In this document: positions 45,073 to 51,370 of the stretch, one piece after another
Layout of the letters: every line of letters starts with the position of its first letter
Numbering within the stretch: position 1 is the first letter of the stretch
Origin: Marmoricola sp. URHB0036
Lineage (GTDB): Bacteria > Actinomycetota > Actinomycetes > Propionibacteriales > Nocardioidaceae
Direction of reading: 5' to 3'
DNA: 64,000 nucleotides
NCBI RefSeq assembly: GCF_000426045.1
Contig: NZ_KE384490.1
Span: 601,046-665,045 of the forward strand
The notes under the pieces: model-generated
The model's database searches: none
Told to the model about the DNA's origin: nothing
Seen by the model: only the letters and a program-made list of their open reading frames with translations
Position numbers and translations under genes: made by a program

Positions 45073-48000
45073 TTGTCCGACCCGTTCGTCCACCTCCACG
45101 TCGCCTCCGGCTACTCCCTGCAGTACGGCGCCTCGCACCCCCACGTCCTCGTCGAACGCGCCGCCGAGCAGGAGATGGACGCCCTCGCCCTGACCGACCG
45201 CGACGGCACCTACGGCGCGGTCCGGTTCGCCAAGGCCGCCACGGCGATGGGCGTCCGCCCGATCCTGGGCGTCGACCTGGCGTTCTCTCCTCGCTCGGGG
45301 GACGAGGAGCGGGCGCCGGCGCCGACACGCACTCCCACCCGGGGCGGCGCCTCCCGCGACCAACGGCTGCCCCGGGTGACCTTCCTGGCCAGCGGCCGGG
45401 CGGGGTGGGCGGCGGTGTGCCGGCTGGTCTCGGCGACCCACGCCGCCGGCGAGCGCGGCACCCCGGTCTGCTCGCCCGAGCTGGTCGCCGAGCACGTCGC
45501 CGGGCGTGACGTCCGGGTGCTGCTCGGTCCGGCCTCCGAGCTGGGGCACGCGGCCACGTTGCGGCGCGACGACCTCGGCCGCGAGGTCCTGGAGCGGTGG
45601 CTCGACCTGGTCGGTCCCGACCAGCTCACCGTCGAGGTGGTCTCCCACCGGCTGCCCGGCTCCGGCCCGGGGTCCTCACCGCATGCCGCCCGGATGACGG
45701 GCCTGGCCCGGTCCGGACGGGCCCGGTTGCCGGTCGTGCTCTCCAACGCGGTCCGCTTCGCCGACCGGCTCGACGCTCCCACGACCGACGTACTCGATGC
45801 GGCCAGGCGGTTGGTGCCGATGGACCTGCGCCACCTCGACCGGCGCAACGCCGAGGGGTTCTTGAAGTCCGGCAAGCAGATGCACGAGGTGGCCGAGGAG
45901 ATCTGTCGCTACGCCGGGCTGGGGGAGTCCGAGCGGTCGGCCACCGAGCTGCTCGCCCGCACCCGCGCCGTCGCCGACCAGTGCGTCCTCGACCCCCGCA
46001 CCGACCTCGGCATCGGAGAAGTGCACTTCCCGGAGTTCGAGATCTCGACCGGGGGTGTCCCGTCCCTCCAGCGGTCACGGGGCTTCGGGGCCGCCGGGGG
46101 AAGCGTGGATGGGACTGGCCCCCCTTCGCGAGGAACGAGCGAAGGGGTGGTTGCGCGCCCCGGGGTGTCCCGAAGCCCCGTGACCGCCGCTGGATGGGAC
46201 ACCCCCGCCGACGCCGAGCTGAGAAAGAGGTGTGAGGCGGGCATCGGCTGGCGCTACGGGGGTGCCCCACGCCAGCGGATCTGGAAGCGGCTCGACGACG
46301 AGCTCGCGACCATCCGCACGCTCGGCTACGCGTCGTACTTCCTCACCGTCGGCGACGTCACGCAGATGATCCGCGAGCTCGGCATCCGCAGTGCCGCCCG
46401 CGGGTCGGGGGCGGGCAGCATCGTGAACTATCTGCTCGGCATCTCCGGGATCGACCCGATCCGCCACGGGCTGCTGATGGAGCGGTTCCTCTCGCCACTG
46501 CGACGCTCGCTGCCCGACATCGACATCGACGTGGAGTCCGCGCGGCGGCTGGAGGTCTACGACGCGATCCTCGATCGCTACGGCAAGGAACGCTGCGCCA
46601 CCGTCTCGATGATGGACACCTACAAGGTGCGCCACGCGATCCGCGACGTCGGGGCCGCGCTCGGCATGCCGGTGGGAGAGATCGACGCCATCGCCAAGGC
46701 GTTCCCGCACATCCGCGCCCGCGACGCCCGGCTGGCGCTGCGCGACCTGCCCGAGCTGCGCGCCACCGGCCTGGCCCGGGAGGCGGCGGCTGGGGAGTGG
46801 GGCACCTTCGACATGTTCTTCCGGCTCGTCGAGAGCCTCGACGGCCTGCCCCGCCACATCGCGATGCACCCGTGCGGCGTACTCCTCTCCGACGCCACGC
46901 TGCTCGACCGCACCCCGGTGGAGCAGAGCTTCCTGGGCTACCCCATGAGCCAGTTCGACAAGGAGGACGTCGAGGACCTCGGGCTGCTCAAGCTCGACGT
47001 GCTCGGCATCCGGATGCAGTCCTCGATGGCCCACGCCGTGCAGGAGATCGAGCGCACCGAGGGGCATCGCATCGACCTCGACGACGAGGTGCAGGTGCCC
47101 TTCGACGACCAGCGCACCTACGACATGATCTCGGCCGCCAAGACCCTCGGCGTCTTCCAGATCGAGTCGCCCGGTCAGCGCGAGCTGGTCGGCAAGTCCG
47201 GCATCGAGACCTTCGAGGACATCATCGCCGACATCTCGCTGTTCCGGCCGGGGCCGGTGAAGAGCGACATGATCACGCCGTACCTCGAGGTCAAGCAGGG
47301 CTGGAAGGAGGTCAGCTACCTCCACGACGACCTGCGTCCGATCCTCGAGCGCACCCGCGGCGTGGTCGTCTACCACGAGCAGGTCATCGAGATGATCGCC
47401 GAGTTCGCCGGCGTCTCCTACGCCGAGGGTGACGAGTGGCGCCGCGCGCTCGGCGACACCGAGGGGATGGCCGAGACGAAGACGTGGTTCTACCCGCGGG
47501 CCCTGGGCCGCGGCTACCCGCTGCCGGTGGTCGACGAGCTCTGGAGGGTGATCGCCTCCTTCGCCTCCTTCGGCTTCTGCAAGGCCCACGCCGCCGCGTT
47601 CGCGCTGCCGACCTACCAGTCGGCCTGGCTCAAGGCGCACTACCCGGCCCACTTCCTGGCCGGGGTGCTGACCCACGACCCGGGGATGTACCCCAAGCGG
47701 CTGATCCTCGACGACGCCCGCCAGCTCGGCATCTCGGTGCTCGGCCTCGACGTCAACGCCAGCCAGGCGGAGTACGCCGTGGAGAAGCTGCCCGACGCCA
47801 CCCCGCTGCCCAGCCACCCGCGCATCTCCGCGACCACCGACCGGATCCGTCCGCGGGGCGGGATCTACCGCACGCTGCCGACGGTGGACCAGCCGATCCC
47901 GGGCGACGAGGGGGACGGTCCGGCCTGGATGGGTCACGGCTGGGGCATCCGGATCGCGCTGGGGGAGGTGCGCGGCATCAACGACGGGGAGGTGCACCGC

Positions 48001-48978
48001 ATCGTCACCGCCCGCGACGGGGCGCCGTACGCCTCGTTGACCGACTTCTGGCAGCGCGCCCAGGTCTCCCGCCCGGTGGTCGAGCGACTGGTGCAGGCCG
48101 GGGCGTTCGACACCGTCTACGGCATCGGCACCACCGCCGGCACCGGTCGCCGCCACCGGGTGACCCGCCGCGACCTGCTGCTGGAGATCGGCGACCTCGA
48201 CCGGCTCCAGCGGGCGTCGTCGCGGGCGAGCAAGGGGCGTGCCCGCGGGCTGCCGCGGTCGCGGCCGGCGTCGGCGGAGTCCGGCGACGCCTCGGTGCAG
48301 CTCGCCCTCGACCTCGGTGCCACCGACCGCCAACAGGTGAGCGGGCTGCCGGAGATGACCGACACCGACCGGGTCCGCGCCGAGCTCGACATCCTCGGTC
48401 TCGACGCCAGCCACCACGTCGTCGAATTCCACGCGCCCTTCCTCGACCGGCTCGGGGTCACCCGTTCGGTCGACCTGCTCGATGCCCGCAGCCGCAGCGA
48501 GCTGCTGGTGGCCGGGGTGAAGGTGGCCACCCAGACACCGCCGATCAGGTCGGGGCGCCGGGTCATCTTCTTGACCCTCGACGACGCCACCGGCCCGGTC
48601 GACGCGACCTTCTTCGAGGACGTGCAGGGGCCCTACGCCGCGACCGTGTTCGGCTCCTGGCTGCTGGTGGTGCGCGGTGAGCTGCGGCGCACCGGCCGGC
48701 GCGGGGTCTCGCTGCGTGCCACCGGCGCCTGGGACCTCGGCACGCTGCACGACCTCTGGAAGGCCGAGGGGATGGCCGCCGTGCACGCCGAGATCGACCG
48801 GACTCCGGAGGGCTTCGGTGTCGGTCCGGCGCAGGGGACCAGCCGGGTGATGGTGCACACCAGCGGGTTCCGGATGTCGCCGTACGCCGACATCAAGCCG
48901 GCCGGCGACTCGACCGGGGCCGTCACCGGCCAGGTGGCCCGCAAGCTGTGGCACCGCAGCCCCGGGAGCGCGGGATGA
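45073..48978 (+). CDS. dnaE2: Error-prone DNA polymerase DnaE2 with in-frame element insertion
   Basis: 1301 aa, longer than usual for DnaE2. The PHP domain begins FVHLHVASGYSLQYGASHPH. The C-family polymerase core follows with the catalytic aspartates in LPDIDIDVESARRL. Tandem HhH and OB-fold regions end the protein. DnaE2 performs damage-induced mutagenesis and translesion synthesis. Residues about 327-378 (Gly/Ser/Arg/Pro-rich, from GVPSLQRSRG to TAAGWDT) come from a palindromic repeat at 46051-46206 placed in the linker between PHP and palm domains; the frame is kept. TTG 45073 is the best start by homology. It lies under the LexA box operon. Confidence 0.93.
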   Translation: MSDPFVHLHVASGYSLQYGASHPHVLVERAAEQEMDALALTDRDGTYGAVRFAKAATAMGVRPILGVDLAFSPRSGDEERAPAPTRTPTRGGASRDQRLPRVTFLASGRAGWAAVCRLVSATHAAGERGTPVCSPELVAEHVAGRDVRVLLGPASELGHAATLRRDDLGREVLERWLDLVGPDQLTVEVVSHRLPGSGPGSSPHAARMTGLARSGRARLPVVLSNAVRFADRLDAPTTDVLDAARRLVPMDLRHLDRRNAEGFLKSGKQMHEVAEEICRYAGLGESERSATELLARTRAVADQCVLDPRTDLGIGEVHFPEFEISTGGVPSLQRSRGFGAAGGSVDGTGPPSRGTSEGVVARPGVSRSPVTAAGWDTPADAELRKRCEAGIGWRYGGAPRQRIWKRLDDELATIRTLGYASYFLTVGDVTQMIRELGIRSAARGSGAGSIVNYLLGISGIDPIRHGLLMERFLSPLRRSLPDIDIDVESARRLEVYDAILDRYGKERCATVSMMDTYKVRHAIRDVGAALGMPVGEIDAIAKAFPHIRARDARLALRDLPELRATGLAREAAAGEWGTFDMFFRLVESLDGLPRHIAMHPCGVLLSDATLLDRTPVEQSFLGYPMSQFDKEDVEDLGLLKLDVLGIRMQSSMAHAVQEIERTEGHRIDLDDEVQVPFDDQRTYDMISAAKTLGVFQIESPGQRELVGKSGIETFEDIIADISLFRPGPVKSDMITPYLEVKQGWKEVSYLHDDLRPILERTRGVVVYHEQVIEMIAEFAGVSYAEGDEWRRALGDTEGMAETKTWFYPRALGRGYPLPVVDELWRVIASFASFGFCKAHAAAFALPTYQSAWLKAHYPAHFLAGVLTHDPGMYPKRLILDDARQLGISVLGLDVNASQAEYAVEKLPDATPLPSHPRISATTDRIRPRGGIYRTLPTVDQPIPGDEGDGPAWMGHGWGIRIALGEVRGINDGEVHRIVTARDGAPYASLTDFWQRAQVSRPVVERLVQAGAFDTVYGIGTTAGTGRRHRVTRRDLLLEIGDLDRLQRASSRASKGRARGLPRSRPASAESGDASVQLALDLGATDRQQVSGLPEMTDTDRVRAELDILGLDASHHVVEFHAPFLDRLGVTRSVDLLDARSRSELLVAGVKVATQTPPIRSGRRVIFLTLDDATGPVDATFFEDVQGPYAATVFGSWLLVVRGELRRTGRRGVSLRATGAWDLGTLHDLWKAEGMAAVHAEIDRTPEGFGVGPAQGTSRVMVHTSGFRMSPYADIKPAGDSTGAVTGQVARKLWHRSPGSAG
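46051..46206 (+). repeat. Palindromic element with variable arms, copy 1, inside dnaE2
   Basis: 156 bp, exactly 52 codons in the dnaE2 frame. The outer arms 46051-46089 and 46168-46206 are long imperfect inverted repeats, about 35 pairs with two small bulges. The core 46094-46156 is 62/63 identical to 50015-50077 and holds the hairpin CCCCTTCG (46121-46128) with CGAAGGGG (46140-46147). Homologous DnaE2 proteins would pass straight from HFPEFE to the ADAELRKRCEAG region, so this is an insertion. Confidence 0.88.
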
Positions 48979-48999: not shown

Positions 49000-49161
49000 G
49001 GGGGCGGCCGCAGCCTCCATGGCCTGCTACGCGCCGCCCATCACGCACGCTGGCTGCGTTGTCGTCAGTCGACGTGGTATCCACCACGCCTTCCTTCCTC
49101 CGCCTTGCCATCGCACGCGCTGGACGACGCTCGCGACGGCCGAGAGGCTGCGGCCACCCCC
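49000..49161. repeat. Long foldback in the dnaE2/methyltransferase gap
   Basis: GGCCGCAGCCTC (49006-49017) is the perfect reverse complement of GAGGCTGCGGCC (49144-49155). Beyond one mismatch the pairing continues as GGGGG (49000-49004) with CCCCC (49157-49161). The 126-nt interior contains a further hairpin, CGTGGT-ATCC-ACCACG. The region does not look coding. It resembles the architecture of the other palindromic element (arms around a core) but shares no obvious core sequence with it. Confidence 0.6.
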
Positions 49162-49174
49162 TAGGGTTGGGCCC

Positions 49175-49921
49175 ATGGACCGCCCGTTCGAACGCCGTAC
49201 CGCCGCCCGCACCGCGGTCGTCTGGGACGCCGTCCGGGCGCTGCTCGACGGCTCCAGCGAGCAGCGTGTCCTCGACATCGGCGGCGGCACCGGCGGATTC
49301 GCCGTACGCCTCGCCGGCCTCGGCCACCGGGTCACCGTCGTCGACCCCAGCCCCGACGCCCTCGCCGCGCTCGCCCGCCGGGCCGACGAGGAAGACGTGG
49401 CCGACCGGATCACCGGCCTCCAGGGCGACCTCGGCAACCTGCGCGAGCTCGCCCCCGACGCTGCCGACGAGGTGGCAGACCTGGTGCTGTGCCACGGCGT
49501 GCTCGGCCTGGTCGACGACCCGGCCAGCGCCCTGGCGACGATCACCTCGGTGCTGCGTCCCGGCGGCGCCCTGTCGCTGCTGGTCAACCAGCGTCACGCC
49601 GCCGTGCTCGCCCGCGCGATGGCCGGTCACTTCGTCCAGGCCCGCGAGATCCTCGAGGGCGACCAGTCGGCCAAGCAGTCGACCAAGGACCGTGGGGAGC
49701 GCCGGTTCACCGCCGAGGAGGTCGCCCAGCTGCTCGGCACGGCCGGGTTCACCACGTCCTCGACCCACGGCATCCGCGTCTTCGCCGACCTCGTGCCCTC
49801 CTCCCTGCTCGACCTCGAACCCGGCGCGAACGCCGCGCTCCTGGAGCTCGAGCGAGCAGTCGCCGACCGCCCCGAGTACCTCACCCTGGCCAGCCAGCTG
49901 CACGTCATCGCCACCCGCTAG
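49175..49921 (+). CDS. Class I SAM-dependent methyltransferase
   Basis: 248 aa. Rossmann-like SAM-binding motif VLDIGGGTGGFAVRLAGLGH, then VTVVDPSPDALAAL, DLVLCHGVLGLVDDP and LRPGGALSLLVNQRHAAVLA. The overall pattern resembles CmoM/SmtA-type enzymes, though the substrate is unknown. TAGGGT at 49162-49167 lies 7 nt upstream of ATG, so it may have its own leaderless promoter in addition to the SOS operon. It lies between dnaE2 and dinB, each gap holding a palindromic structure. Confidence 0.85.
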   Translation: MDRPFERRTAARTAVVWDAVRALLDGSSEQRVLDIGGGTGGFAVRLAGLGHRVTVVDPSPDALAALARRADEEDVADRITGLQGDLGNLRELAPDAADEVADLVLCHGVLGLVDDPASALATITSVLRPGGALSLLVNQRHAAVLARAMAGHFVQAREILEGDQSAKQSTKDRGERRFTAEEVAQLLGTAGFTTSSTHGIRVFADLVPSSLLDLEPGANAALLELERAVADRPEYLTLASQLHVIATR

Positions 49922-49979: not shown

Positions 49980-50122
49980 GGCCGTCTGCTGGCCGGTGAT
50001 GGGTGGCGGCGCCTCCGGGGGAAGCGTGGATGGGACTGGCCCCCCTTCGTGAGGAACGAGCGAAGGGGTGGTTGCGCCCCCCGGAGTGTGCCGACGCCCA
50101 TCACCGGCCCCCACGGACGGCC
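49980..50122. repeat. Palindromic element with variable arms, copy 2
   Basis: Core 50015-50077 is 62/63 identical to the core inside dnaE2, with the same hairpin at 50042-50049 and 50061-50068. Its arms are unrelated in sequence to those of copy 1 but again self-complementary: GGCCGTC (49980-49986) with GACGGCC (50116-50122), CCGGTGATGGG (49993-50003) with CCCATCACCGG (50097-50107), and CTCCGGGG with CCCCGGAG next to the core. It lies in the 252-bp gap before dinB. Confidence 0.88.
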
Positions 50123-50173: not shown

Positions 50174-51370
50174 ATGAAGGACCGCTCCTGGGACTGCCCG
50201 ATCCTGCACGTCGACATGGACGCCTTCTTCGCCTCGGTGGCGATCCGGGACCGGCCCGAGCTCGCCGATGTCCCGGTCATCGTGGGCGGTGGCAACAGGG
50301 GAGTGGTGCTGGCGGCCAACTACCCGGCCCGGAAGTACGGCGTCCACTCCGCCCTGCCGATGACTCGTGCTCGTCGGATGTGCCCCGACGCGGTCGTGCT
50401 CTCACCCGACTACACCGACTTCGACGGGGTCTCCTCGTCGGTGATGGAGATCTTCCGCGAGGTCACTCCGCTGGTGGAGGCGGTCTCGCTCGACGAGGCG
50501 TTCCTCGACGTCTCCGGCGCCACCCGACGGCTCGGCAGTCCGTTGTCCATCGCCGAGCACATCCGGGCCCGGGTCGCCGACGAGCAGCGGATCACCTGTT
50601 CGGTCGGTGTGGCCGGCACGGTCTCGGTGGCCAAGCTGGCCAGCCGGCGCGCCAAGCCCGACGGGGTGCTCGTCGTACCCCCGCGCGAGGTGACCCGGTT
50701 CCTGCACCCCCTCGACGTCGGTGAGCTGTGGGGCGTGGGGGAGAAGACCCGCGAGCAGCTGCACCGGCTCGGGCTACGCACGGTGGGCGATGTCGCGCAC
50801 ACCCCGGTGGCCACGCTGCAGCGTGGGCTCGGGGCGGCTCTCGGCGGGCAGCTCCACCACCTTGCCTGGGGCACCGACCGGCGCGTGGTCGCGGCGCGGC
50901 GCGGCACCCACGAGCCCGACAAGAGCATGGGGGCCGACGAGACCTTCGGCCGTGACACCGACGACCGGGCCGTGGTGATGCGCGAGCTGCTGCGGCTCTC
51001 GGCCAAGGTGACCCGGCGGATGCGGACCGCCGGCGTGGCCGGTCGCACCGTCACCTTGAGGGTGCGTTTCGCCGACTTCACCACGATCACCCGCTCCCGC
51101 ACGCTGGGCGACGCCACCGACGTCACCGGCGAGGTGCATGCGACCGCGGCCGGCCTGTTCGACGCCCTCGGTCTCCAGCGGGCCCGGATCCGCCTGGTGG
51201 GGGTGCGGGTGGAGGGGCTGGTTCCGCGGGGGCAGGTGCAGCGCCAGCTCGTCCTCGGGGCCCGCGAACGAGGCTGGGAGGAGGCCGACCGAGCCACCGA
51301 TGCGGCGGCGCTGCGCTTCGGCGGCGGCGCCGTACGCCGGGCCACGCTGCTGATCGGTGACCGACCGTGA
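50174..51370 (+). CDS. dinB: Y-family DNA polymerase IV (DinB)
   Basis: 398 aa. Catalytic motifs intact: HVDMDAFFASVAIRD and SLDEAFLDVSGATRR, plus the steric-gate region and little-finger domain (MRTAGVAGRTVTLRVRFADF). It copies damaged templates with low fidelity. ImuB homologues usually lack the acidic residues, so this is an active Pol IV rather than ImuB. ATG 50174 has an excellent AGGAGG at 50162-50167. It is the last gene of the damage cassette and is separated from the methyltransferase by the second palindromic element. Confidence 0.92.
   Translation: MKDRSWDCPILHVDMDAFFASVAIRDRPELADVPVIVGGGNRGVVLAANYPARKYGVHSALPMTRARRMCPDAVVLSPDYTDFDGVSSSVMEIFREVTPLVEAVSLDEAFLDVSGATRRLGSPLSIAEHIRARVADEQRITCSVGVAGTVSVAKLASRRAKPDGVLVVPPREVTRFLHPLDVGELWGVGEKTREQLHRLGLRTVGDVAHTPVATLQRGLGAALGGQLHHLAWGTDRRVVAARRGTHEPDKSMGADETFGRDTDDRAVVMRELLRLSAKVTRRMRTAGVAGRTVTLRVRFADFTTITRSRTLGDATDVTGEVHATAAGLFDALGLQRARIRLVGVRVEGLVPRGQVQRQLVLGARERGWEEADRATDAAALRFGGGAVRRATLLIGDRP

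What the first reader, a model, noticed from the sequence alone, without database searches (positions are those of the whole stretch)
46051..46206. Palindromic element inserted in frame inside dnaE2
Seen: a 156-bp block (52 codons, no stop) in dnaE2 contains a 63-bp core 62/63 identical to a non-coding copy at 50015-50077, with arms of about 39 nt that fold back on each other. It falls in the PHP-to-polymerase linker and adds about 52 Gly/Ser/Arg/Pro-rich residues. Known: in-frame palindromic elements inside genes have been described in Rickettsia (RPEs). Inference: an actinobacterial analogue that can colonise coding sequence without destroying function, or an RNA element removed or acting at RNA level.
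Basis: partly seen in the sequence, partly recalled or inferred. Interest (0 to 1): 0.85.

Follow-up and report, generated by a model that had tools for sequence, protein, structure and literature searches.

The report
Capped hairpin element inside actinobacterial dnaE2
A DNA-polymerase gene of an actinobacterium carries, in frame, one copy of a dispersed hairpin element with a fixed tip on a stem that differs from copy to copy, much like the palindromic elements known to invade Rickettsia genes.

Summary
The 62/63 core (46094-46156; 50015-50077) is one member of a dispersed family: three copies in this genome, matches in 48 of 341 genomes of its family and in other actinobacterial genera. No Rfam match at the element in the loci tried. 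Each copy is a hairpin: a conserved cap of about 60 nt on a copy-specific stem (median 28 matched pairs in the 101 of 164 best-paired copies). Stem mismatches are strand-asymmetric (G.A 179: C.U 23; G.U 118: A.C 52), so one single strand, RNA or ssDNA, seems to be what folds. Intergenic copies avoid divergent gaps (2 of 68; background 79 of 221); others lie in frame in proteins, DnaE2 three times. Nine DnaE2 orthologues lack the insert; five relatives lack the dinB copy. Y1/RAYT transposase is in 1 of 48 carriers. Best reading: a REP/RPE-like, non-autonomous palindromic element that adds 40-52 residues to the PHP-polymerase linker and stays in the protein. Its mobiliser is unknown, and mobility itself is inferred. 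Removal at the RNA level has no support but was not testable.

The parts
45073..48978 (+). dnaE2 (error-prone DNA polymerase III alpha) ORF, TTG start, 1301 aa
   Evidence: PHP, DNA_pol3_alpha, finger, HHH_6, OB
46051..46206 (+). in-frame insert, residues 327-378, in the PHP-to-polymerase linker; 52 codons longer than in G013, 40 longer than in G008/G009/G002
46094..46156 (+). conserved cap of the dnaE2 copy (62/63 to the second copy)
46050..46099 (+). 5' arm of the hairpin (approximate limits from the fold; overlaps the start of the shared core), outer part different in sequence from the second copy
46157..46207 (+). 3' arm of the hairpin (approximate limits from the fold)
46129..46129 (+). 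only mismatch of the 63-nt core: C (CGA, Arg) here, T (TGA) at 50050 in the intergenic copy
50015..50077 (+). conserved cap of the second, intergenic copy
49980..50122 (+). full hairpin of the second copy, between a methyltransferase gene and dinB
49019..49921 (+). methyltransferase-domain gene between dnaE2 and dinB
50174..51370 (+). dinB-type Y-family polymerase gene (IMS, IMS_C)

Best explanation
This is one copy of a dispersed, non-autonomous palindromic element of Actinomycetes (working name: capped-hairpin element). Shown: a conserved cap of about 60 nt (TGG(N)TGGGNCTGGC, then a small hairpin ending in GA-S-GNA-S'-GA with S:S' covarying) sits on a stem that tends to keep its pairing while its sequence changes; mismatch types single out the strand carrying the cap consensus as the one that folds; intergenic copies avoid divergent gaps, and other copies lie in open frames of proteins, mostly between domain matches or in tails; the dnaE2 and dinB copies are absent from the relatives examined. 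Inferred: the cap, folded as RNA or ssDNA, is the signal by which some trans-acting factor copies or inserts the element; copies survive where they break neither promoters nor folded domains; in dnaE2 the element is transcribed and translated as a 40-52-residue Gly/Ser/Arg/Pro-rich linker and is not removed. The stem is re-paired fast, by selection for the fold or by fold-back templating between the arms.
For: Sets of closely similar copies in one genome: 16 in the loci of Nocardioides ferulae (two stem sub-types, one copy more diverged), six each in G180 and G179. Insert absent from 9 of 9 DnaE2 orthologues of the genus and dinB copy absent from 5 of 5 relatives with the same gene order. S:S' is GC 130, CG 30, with no GG or CC, and 3 of 163 not matching the tip motif; the collecting patterns admitted only C or G at both places. 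Strand asymmetry over 89 stems: G.A 179 v C.U 23 (p 4e-31 against 1:1; arm composition alone predicts 1.7:1), G.U 118 v A.C 52 (p 4.5e-7 against 1:1; predicted 0.66:1). Context of 94 arm-cluster representatives: convergent 24, co-directional 42, divergent 2, in gene 21, edge 5; background gaps 28/114/79. In-gene copies mostly lie between Pfam matches or in tails.
Against: No mobilising enzyme found: Y1_Tnp in 3 of 341 family genomes, only 1 of the 48 carriers; RVT_1 in 5 of 16 carriers tried. No target-site duplication was seen (by eye) and no clean empty site between close relatives was established. In N. ferulae and G180 the similarity runs on beyond the hairpin, so some other repeat could be the unit that spreads. 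Absence in relatives could be loss. One gap (infB-rbfA) is occupied in three Nocardioides and one Cellulosimicrobium, which could mean a retained host function. Only 101 of 164 copies passed a strict pairing test, and 5 of 94 have fewer than 14 matched pairs. Arms-only folding energy shows no strand preference (p 0.69). Strand-biased mutation could add to the G.U excess. Transcription, translation and activity were not observed. Context counts rest on a home-made gene caller.
Confidence: 0.68

Rival explanations
1. A host-beneficial structured RNA: the cap is the binding or processing site of a cellular RNA-binding protein, at 3' ends of transcripts; copies are kept by selection, not by mobility.
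For: Cap positions shared across genera (though the copies were picked by part of this motif); gap between infB and rbfA occupied in four genomes; avoidance of divergent gaps; paired changes at orthologous sites.
Against: Patchy presence (48 of 341 genomes); no shared set of neighbouring genes noticed; sets of closely similar copies in single genomes; copies in both orientations inside coding genes; cap antisense to the genes in 28 of 42 co-directional intergenic copies.
Confidence: 0.2
2. A classical REP/BIME mobilised by a RAYT (Y1 tyrosine transposase).
For: Same genomic niche: unidirectional and convergent gaps, copies inside replication and repair genes including DnaE2 (PMC3733652, passages); some copies in close inverted or tandem pairs.
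Against: Y1_Tnp absent from 47 of 48 carriers; the conserved part is at the tip, not at the foot; far longer than the 20-40 bp given for REPs.
Confidence: 0.06
3. An RNA-removed insert (self-splicing, RNase III excision as in rRNA intervening sequences, or ribosomal bypassing).
For: Extremely stable hairpin in the mRNA.
Against: The dnaE2 block is a multiple of 3 and open; most copies are intergenic; nothing known rejoins cut mRNA here (general knowledge). That the in-gene copies are all open is no independent evidence: my caller defines them by an open frame. This odds figure was raised from 0.03 to 0.04 for that reason.
Confidence: 0.04
4. Chance palindrome or assembly artefact.
For: None found.
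Against: Shuffle controls; 176 matches in 48 genomes (rows summed).
Confidence: 0.01

Closest known systems
Rickettsia palindromic elements (RPEs), as described in PMC2229807 and PMC10969869 (passages read)
   Same: About 105-150 bp, long stem-loop, multi-copy, intergenic and in frame inside unrelated conserved proteins. PMC3733652 equates RPE-4 and RPE-6 with CGTC repeats, which apparently lack a dedicated transposase.
   Different: [quoted passage not shown] here all six reading frames occur and no shared peptide is evident. Here a fixed cap rides on copy-specific arms, in another phylum.
REP sequences, GTAG and CGTC super-families (PMC3733652, abstract and passages)
   Same: Mostly in unidirectional and convergent gaps; GT pairs in stems taken as support for transcription; intragenic copies often in replication and repair genes, DnaE2 among them; dimers of units.
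   Different: REPs are 20-40 bp with a tag at one end; here the hairpin is roughly 120-190 nt with the conserved motif at the tip. The word Actinobacteria has 0 occurrences in that paper's main text.
Enterobacterial RU-1/ERIC, RU-2/YPAL, Neisseria NEMIS/Correia (PMC2229807, passages and table; PMC2759123, start of abstract in a listing)
   Same: Short non-autonomous mobile repeats with long RNA stem loops, some found as in-frame fusions.
   Different: The table lists terminal inverted repeats and target duplications for most of them; here the ends are not conserved across the family and no duplication was seen.
Coding palindromes of Nematomorpha mitochondria (PMC6649704, start of abstract in a listing)
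   Same: Inverted repeats tolerated inside coding sequence.
   Different: No repeated conserved core is mentioned in what was read; mitochondrial.

Membership tests
Rickettsia palindromic elements (RPE) | 100-150 bp palindromic repeat, multi-copy | tested here: met
   (lengths vary, some units longer)
Rickettsia palindromic elements (RPE) | in-frame copies inside unrelated protein genes | tested here: met
   9 of 9 orthologues without the dnaE2 insert
Rickettsia palindromic elements (RPE) | conserved encoded peptide / single frame | tested here: not met
   all six frames occur (one sense frame in 10 of 21); peptides differ
Rickettsia palindromic elements (RPE) | sequence homology to an RPE family; CGTC tag | not tested
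   no RPE sequence was fetched; ends not defined well enough to test a tag
REP/RAYT system | Y1 tyrosine transposase (RAYT) in the carrying genome | tested here: not met
   3 of 341 genomes, 1 of 48 carriers (G340)
REP/RAYT system | 20-40 bp hairpin size | tested here: not met
REP/RAYT system | GTAG or CGTC tag at one end | not tested
   unit ends not defined
REP/RAYT system | intergenic location avoiding divergent gaps | tested here: met
   2 of 68 v 79 of 221, p 7e-9
MITE | terminal inverted repeats shared with a parent IS, target-site duplication | tested here: inconclusive
   unit ends differ between genomes, no duplication seen by eye; no parent IS sought beyond Y1 and RVT
Any Rfam family | match to a covariance model of Rfam 15 at the element | tested here: not met
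   Searches (both window copies, E up to 10; 8 further loci, E up to 1): no hit at the element
Self-splicing or excised RNA | removal from the transcript | not testable with these tools
   needs RT-PCR or RNA-seq

The most novel reading that the evidence does not exclude
A mobile element whose transmitted part is mainly the cap, with the long stem rebuilt or re-templated at each site by fold-back copying. Copies would therefore keep pairing with unrelated arm sequences, flip orientation in place, and turn over their stems far faster than the flanking DNA: a form of inheritance of a shape rather than of a sequence. G179 shows near-identical cores with different but still largely complementary outer helices; L180/L182 show 12 helix pairs changed on both sides between far flanks 98-99% identical (the extreme of five pairs examined); L092/L181 show the element inverted at one orthologous site.
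Probability: 0.27. Interest if true: 0.85.

Novelty: new variant of a known kind. Interest (0 to 1): 0.62.

Why it matters
In the passages I read, in-frame palindromic elements are described for Rickettsia, enterobacteria, Neisseria and other groups outside the Actinobacteria. A patchy family in Actinomycetes, with a cap defined well enough to build a covariance model, gives an independent case in organisms many of which are cultured. It makes two open questions testable: what moves RPE/REP-like elements that have no RAYT, and why such elements turn up in replication, repair and helicase genes (here DnaE2 three times, HrpA-like at three sites, DnaX twice, Lhr once: 9 of the 19 proteins scanned; no background test was made), a pattern also reported for REPs in PMC3733652. 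The stem, which tends to keep pairing while losing sequence identity, is also a test bed for separating selection on structure from templated mutation.

Tried and rejected
Rfam: no family hit at the element. Plasmids and phages (one cap query) and IMG/VR contigs (one strict pattern): no match, so no vehicle was found at that sensitivity. RAYT/Y1 transposase: rejected as the general mobiliser. Genome-encoded reverse transcriptase: 5 of 16 carriers, so not required. Cap-only insertion with the target supplying one arm: tried by comparing dnaE2 and the dinB gap with relatives, L149/L184 and L092 with relatives of G179; relatives are too far or gaps too short to say which arm is native, so it stays open. 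A conserved peptide or single frame: no. Strand preference from arms-only energy: none; the mismatch counts do show it. Bosea (L175) and Oscillospiraceae (L161) pattern hits: judged chance, no long hairpin; L175 was dropped before the counts; L161 did not enter them. Papers: eight searches listed no description of this element; only open-licence papers are held and I read passages of three papers (PMC10969869, PMC2229807, PMC3733652), so this is weak evidence of novelty.

Rows dropped before counts: the 224 raw regex hits in fetched loci include elements fetched more than once; hits within 70 nt of a locus end and copies with identical arms were dropped, leaving 164, minus L175 = 163; 95 arm clusters, 94 after L175; 5 stems with under 14 matched pairs dropped, leaving 89. 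One search aligned 90 of the 94 (three with long caps and L098 left out). In-gene status is defined by my caller as an open frame running through the element, so 'open' is true by construction; genes broken by a copy were not sought. One search listed 22 proteins; with the window that is 23, of which 19 were scanned with Pfam; L089, L148, L163 and L243 were not, and L057 was not listed. Names HrpA, FbiC, DnaX and Lhr, and the orders to which genera belong, are recalled.

Full report
What is in the window. The dnaE2 ORF (45073-48978, 1301 aa) carries a 156-nt block, 46051-46206, in frame and without a stop. A 63-nt core (46094-46156) recurs at 50015-50077, upstream of a dinB-type gene, with one difference, C46129 versus T50050. 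That base would turn CGA into TGA in the dnaE2 frame; across the family C is commoner than T at this place (121 v 39 of the 160 copies matching the tip motif), so the T may be the derived, intergenic state. Both copies fold into one long hairpin (z -9.8 and -7.0).

The insert is specific to this lineage among those examined. DnaE2 orthologues in nine genomes of the genus (G013, G014, G009, G008, G002, G001, G018, G022, G021) all lack it; the other genomes of the genus gave only more distant polymerase hits. The site is a linker that varies in length anyway: this protein is 52 codons longer there than G013 and 40 longer than G008, G009 and G002. Pfam puts it between PHP (7-192) and DNA_pol3_alpha (382-645). 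The gene order dnaE2 - methyltransferase - dinB is kept in G013, G014, G009, G008 and G002, and none of these five has the element in the gap before dinB. Loss in the relatives is not excluded but is the less simple reading.

It belongs to a family. The genome has three copies. A DNA query found matches in 7 of 24 genomes of the genus. A covariance model from 12 copies (R1) found it in 7 of 24, in 48 of 341 genomes of the family and 8 of 26 genera, and in 29 of 391 of an order sample. A second model from 90 copies (R2; its automatic structure has only 13 pairs, so it works mostly as a sequence profile) found 7 of 394 in a class sample. No Rfam family hit the element in the window or in eight further loci. 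It was not found in the plasmid, phage and viral-contig collections with one query each.

Anatomy. Over 90 representative copies the cap reads TGG(N)TGGGNCTGGC, a short helix P2, a tip GCGA-S-GNA-S'-GAGCG, the return of P2, and TGG; the copies were picked by part of this motif, and all were located with a pattern of similar kind, so invariance is partly by selection. S and S' are G-C in 130 and C-G in 30 copies, never G-G or C-C, which the patterns would have admitted; 3 of 163 did not match the tip motif. The cap stands on a stem whose sequence is copy-specific in many genomes. In a simple two-arm alignment 101 of 164 copies have at least 18 matched pairs at over 80% identity, median 28 pairs; the others have shorter or interrupted stems. 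Longer units in some genomes have further purine-rich internal loops.

One strand is what folds. In 89 stems, G.A mismatches outnumber C.U 179 to 23 and G.U pairs outnumber A.C 118 to 52 when read on the cap-consensus strand; composition of the arms would give 1.7:1 and 0.66:1. The G.U excess is strongest about 10-19 nt from the inner end of the arms and weak beyond 20 nt (73 v 47, p 0.02). A palindrome kept only as duplex DNA should show no such asymmetry, though strand-biased mutation could add to it. Against this, the folding energy of the arms alone shows no strand preference, while the whole element does (67 of 88 more stable on the cap strand). RNA and ssDNA cannot be separated by this test.

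Stems can change fast and stay paired. Between two MAG loci whose far flanks are 98-99% identical (L180/L182), the outer arms are 65% and 53% identical, yet 12 pairs changed on both sides and remain paired; 5 are broken and 5 fall in gaps. In the other four pairs of loci examined only 0, 0, 1 and 2 pairs changed on both sides, and 2, 3, 4 and 14 were broken (L177/L209 the worst), so L180/L182 is the extreme case. L096/L143, with flanks 88-92% identical, show coordinated changes in the stem and in P2. In G179, cores and inner stems are almost identical between most of six copies while the next 7-8 bp differ from copy to copy and are still largely complementary (by eye). At one orthologous site (L092 in G179, L181 in its relative G229; flanks 87-89% identical) the element lies in opposite orientation.

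Where it sits. Of 94 arm-cluster representatives, 24 lie between convergent genes, 42 between co-directional genes (28 antisense, 14 sense, p 0.04), 2 between divergent genes, 21 inside genes and 5 at locus edges; 221 background gaps in the same loci split 28 convergent, 114 co-directional, 79 divergent (divergent depletion p 7e-9, convergent enrichment p 9e-5). Gene calls are from a home-made codon model, which counts a copy as in-gene only if an open frame runs through it, so openness is by construction. The 21 in-gene copies use both orientations and all six frames; about 74% of all six frames of intergenic copies are open over the same length, so being open is easy in this GC-rich sequence. 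Nineteen host proteins were scanned: DnaE2 three times (window; L254 in the same linker but another frame; L238 elsewhere, antisense, inside the stretch matched by HHH_6), HrpA-like helicase three times at three sites, DnaX twice, Lhr once, Radical SAM/CofH-type protein three times, AtuA twice, and five others. Most copies lie between Pfam matches or in tails; L238 and L149 fall inside a domain match. The infB-rbfA gap is occupied in three Nocardioides and one Cellulosimicrobium.

How it most likely works. Sets of closely similar copies in single genomes, patchy presence and absence from relatives at both window sites point to a non-autonomous element that is copied in trans; the caveat is that in N. 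ferulae and G180 the similarity runs on beyond the hairpin. The conserved cap on a folded single strand is the likely recognition signal (inference). The enzyme is unknown: Y1/RAYT transposase is present in only 1 of 48 carriers, and reverse transcriptase in 5 of 16 tried. Copies persist away from promoters and folded domains because harmful insertions are lost (inference). In dnaE2 the simplest reading is that the element is translated as a flexible linker; RPEs give the precedent, since one RPE-bearing guanylate kinase is translated and active (PMC2229807, passage).

Compared with what is known. It works like RPEs and REPs: palindromic, multi-copy, downstream of genes, sometimes in frame in proteins, and, as reported for REPs, often in replication and repair genes including DnaE2 (PMC3733652, passages). 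It is not shown to be a member of either: no conserved peptide, no RAYT, a conserved tip, greater size than REPs, and copy-specific arms. I therefore call it a new variant of a known kind. The claim that it is undescribed rests on Rfam and on eight searches of open-licence papers only.

Noticed in passing
L254:1596-1683 (Nocardioides MAG AVDCRST_MAG06) and window 46051-46206: Two copies in the same DnaE2 linker but in different reading frames, suggesting independent insertions at one permissive site.
   Followed up: partly
L157, L171, L199, L173: gap between infB and rbfA: Element present in the infB-rbfA gap in three Nocardioides and one Cellulosimicrobium; retained copy or insertion hot spot.
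   Followed up: partly
L092:1950-2029 versus L181:3853-3932: Element in opposite orientation at one orthologous site between two relatives.
   Followed up: partly
L031, L034, L035, L037, L038, L040, L041, L043; G559 and G490 in the second family: Subgroup with longer matches of about 100-119 nt; in the similar copy L019 the extra bases lie in the cap's tip loop, the others were not inspected.
   Followed up: no
L096:1770-2090 and L143: Flanking arms made of tandem modules of about 13 nt on both sides, so the hairpin may have grown by coordinated repeat expansion.
   Followed up: no
L011 and L018 (G020), 3' flank of the element: A second shared repeat (CACCACGTCTCGGCAAGCTCGACGACCGGGG) lies just beside two copies.
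   Followed up: no
L099, L100, L101 (G294); L098 (G179): Tandem copies about 100-215 bp apart, same orientation.
   Followed up: no
L227:4779-6885 (Cellulosimicrobium marinum): Two same-orientation copies flank a single called gene of about 1.8 kb; not checked for a mobility function.
   Followed up: no
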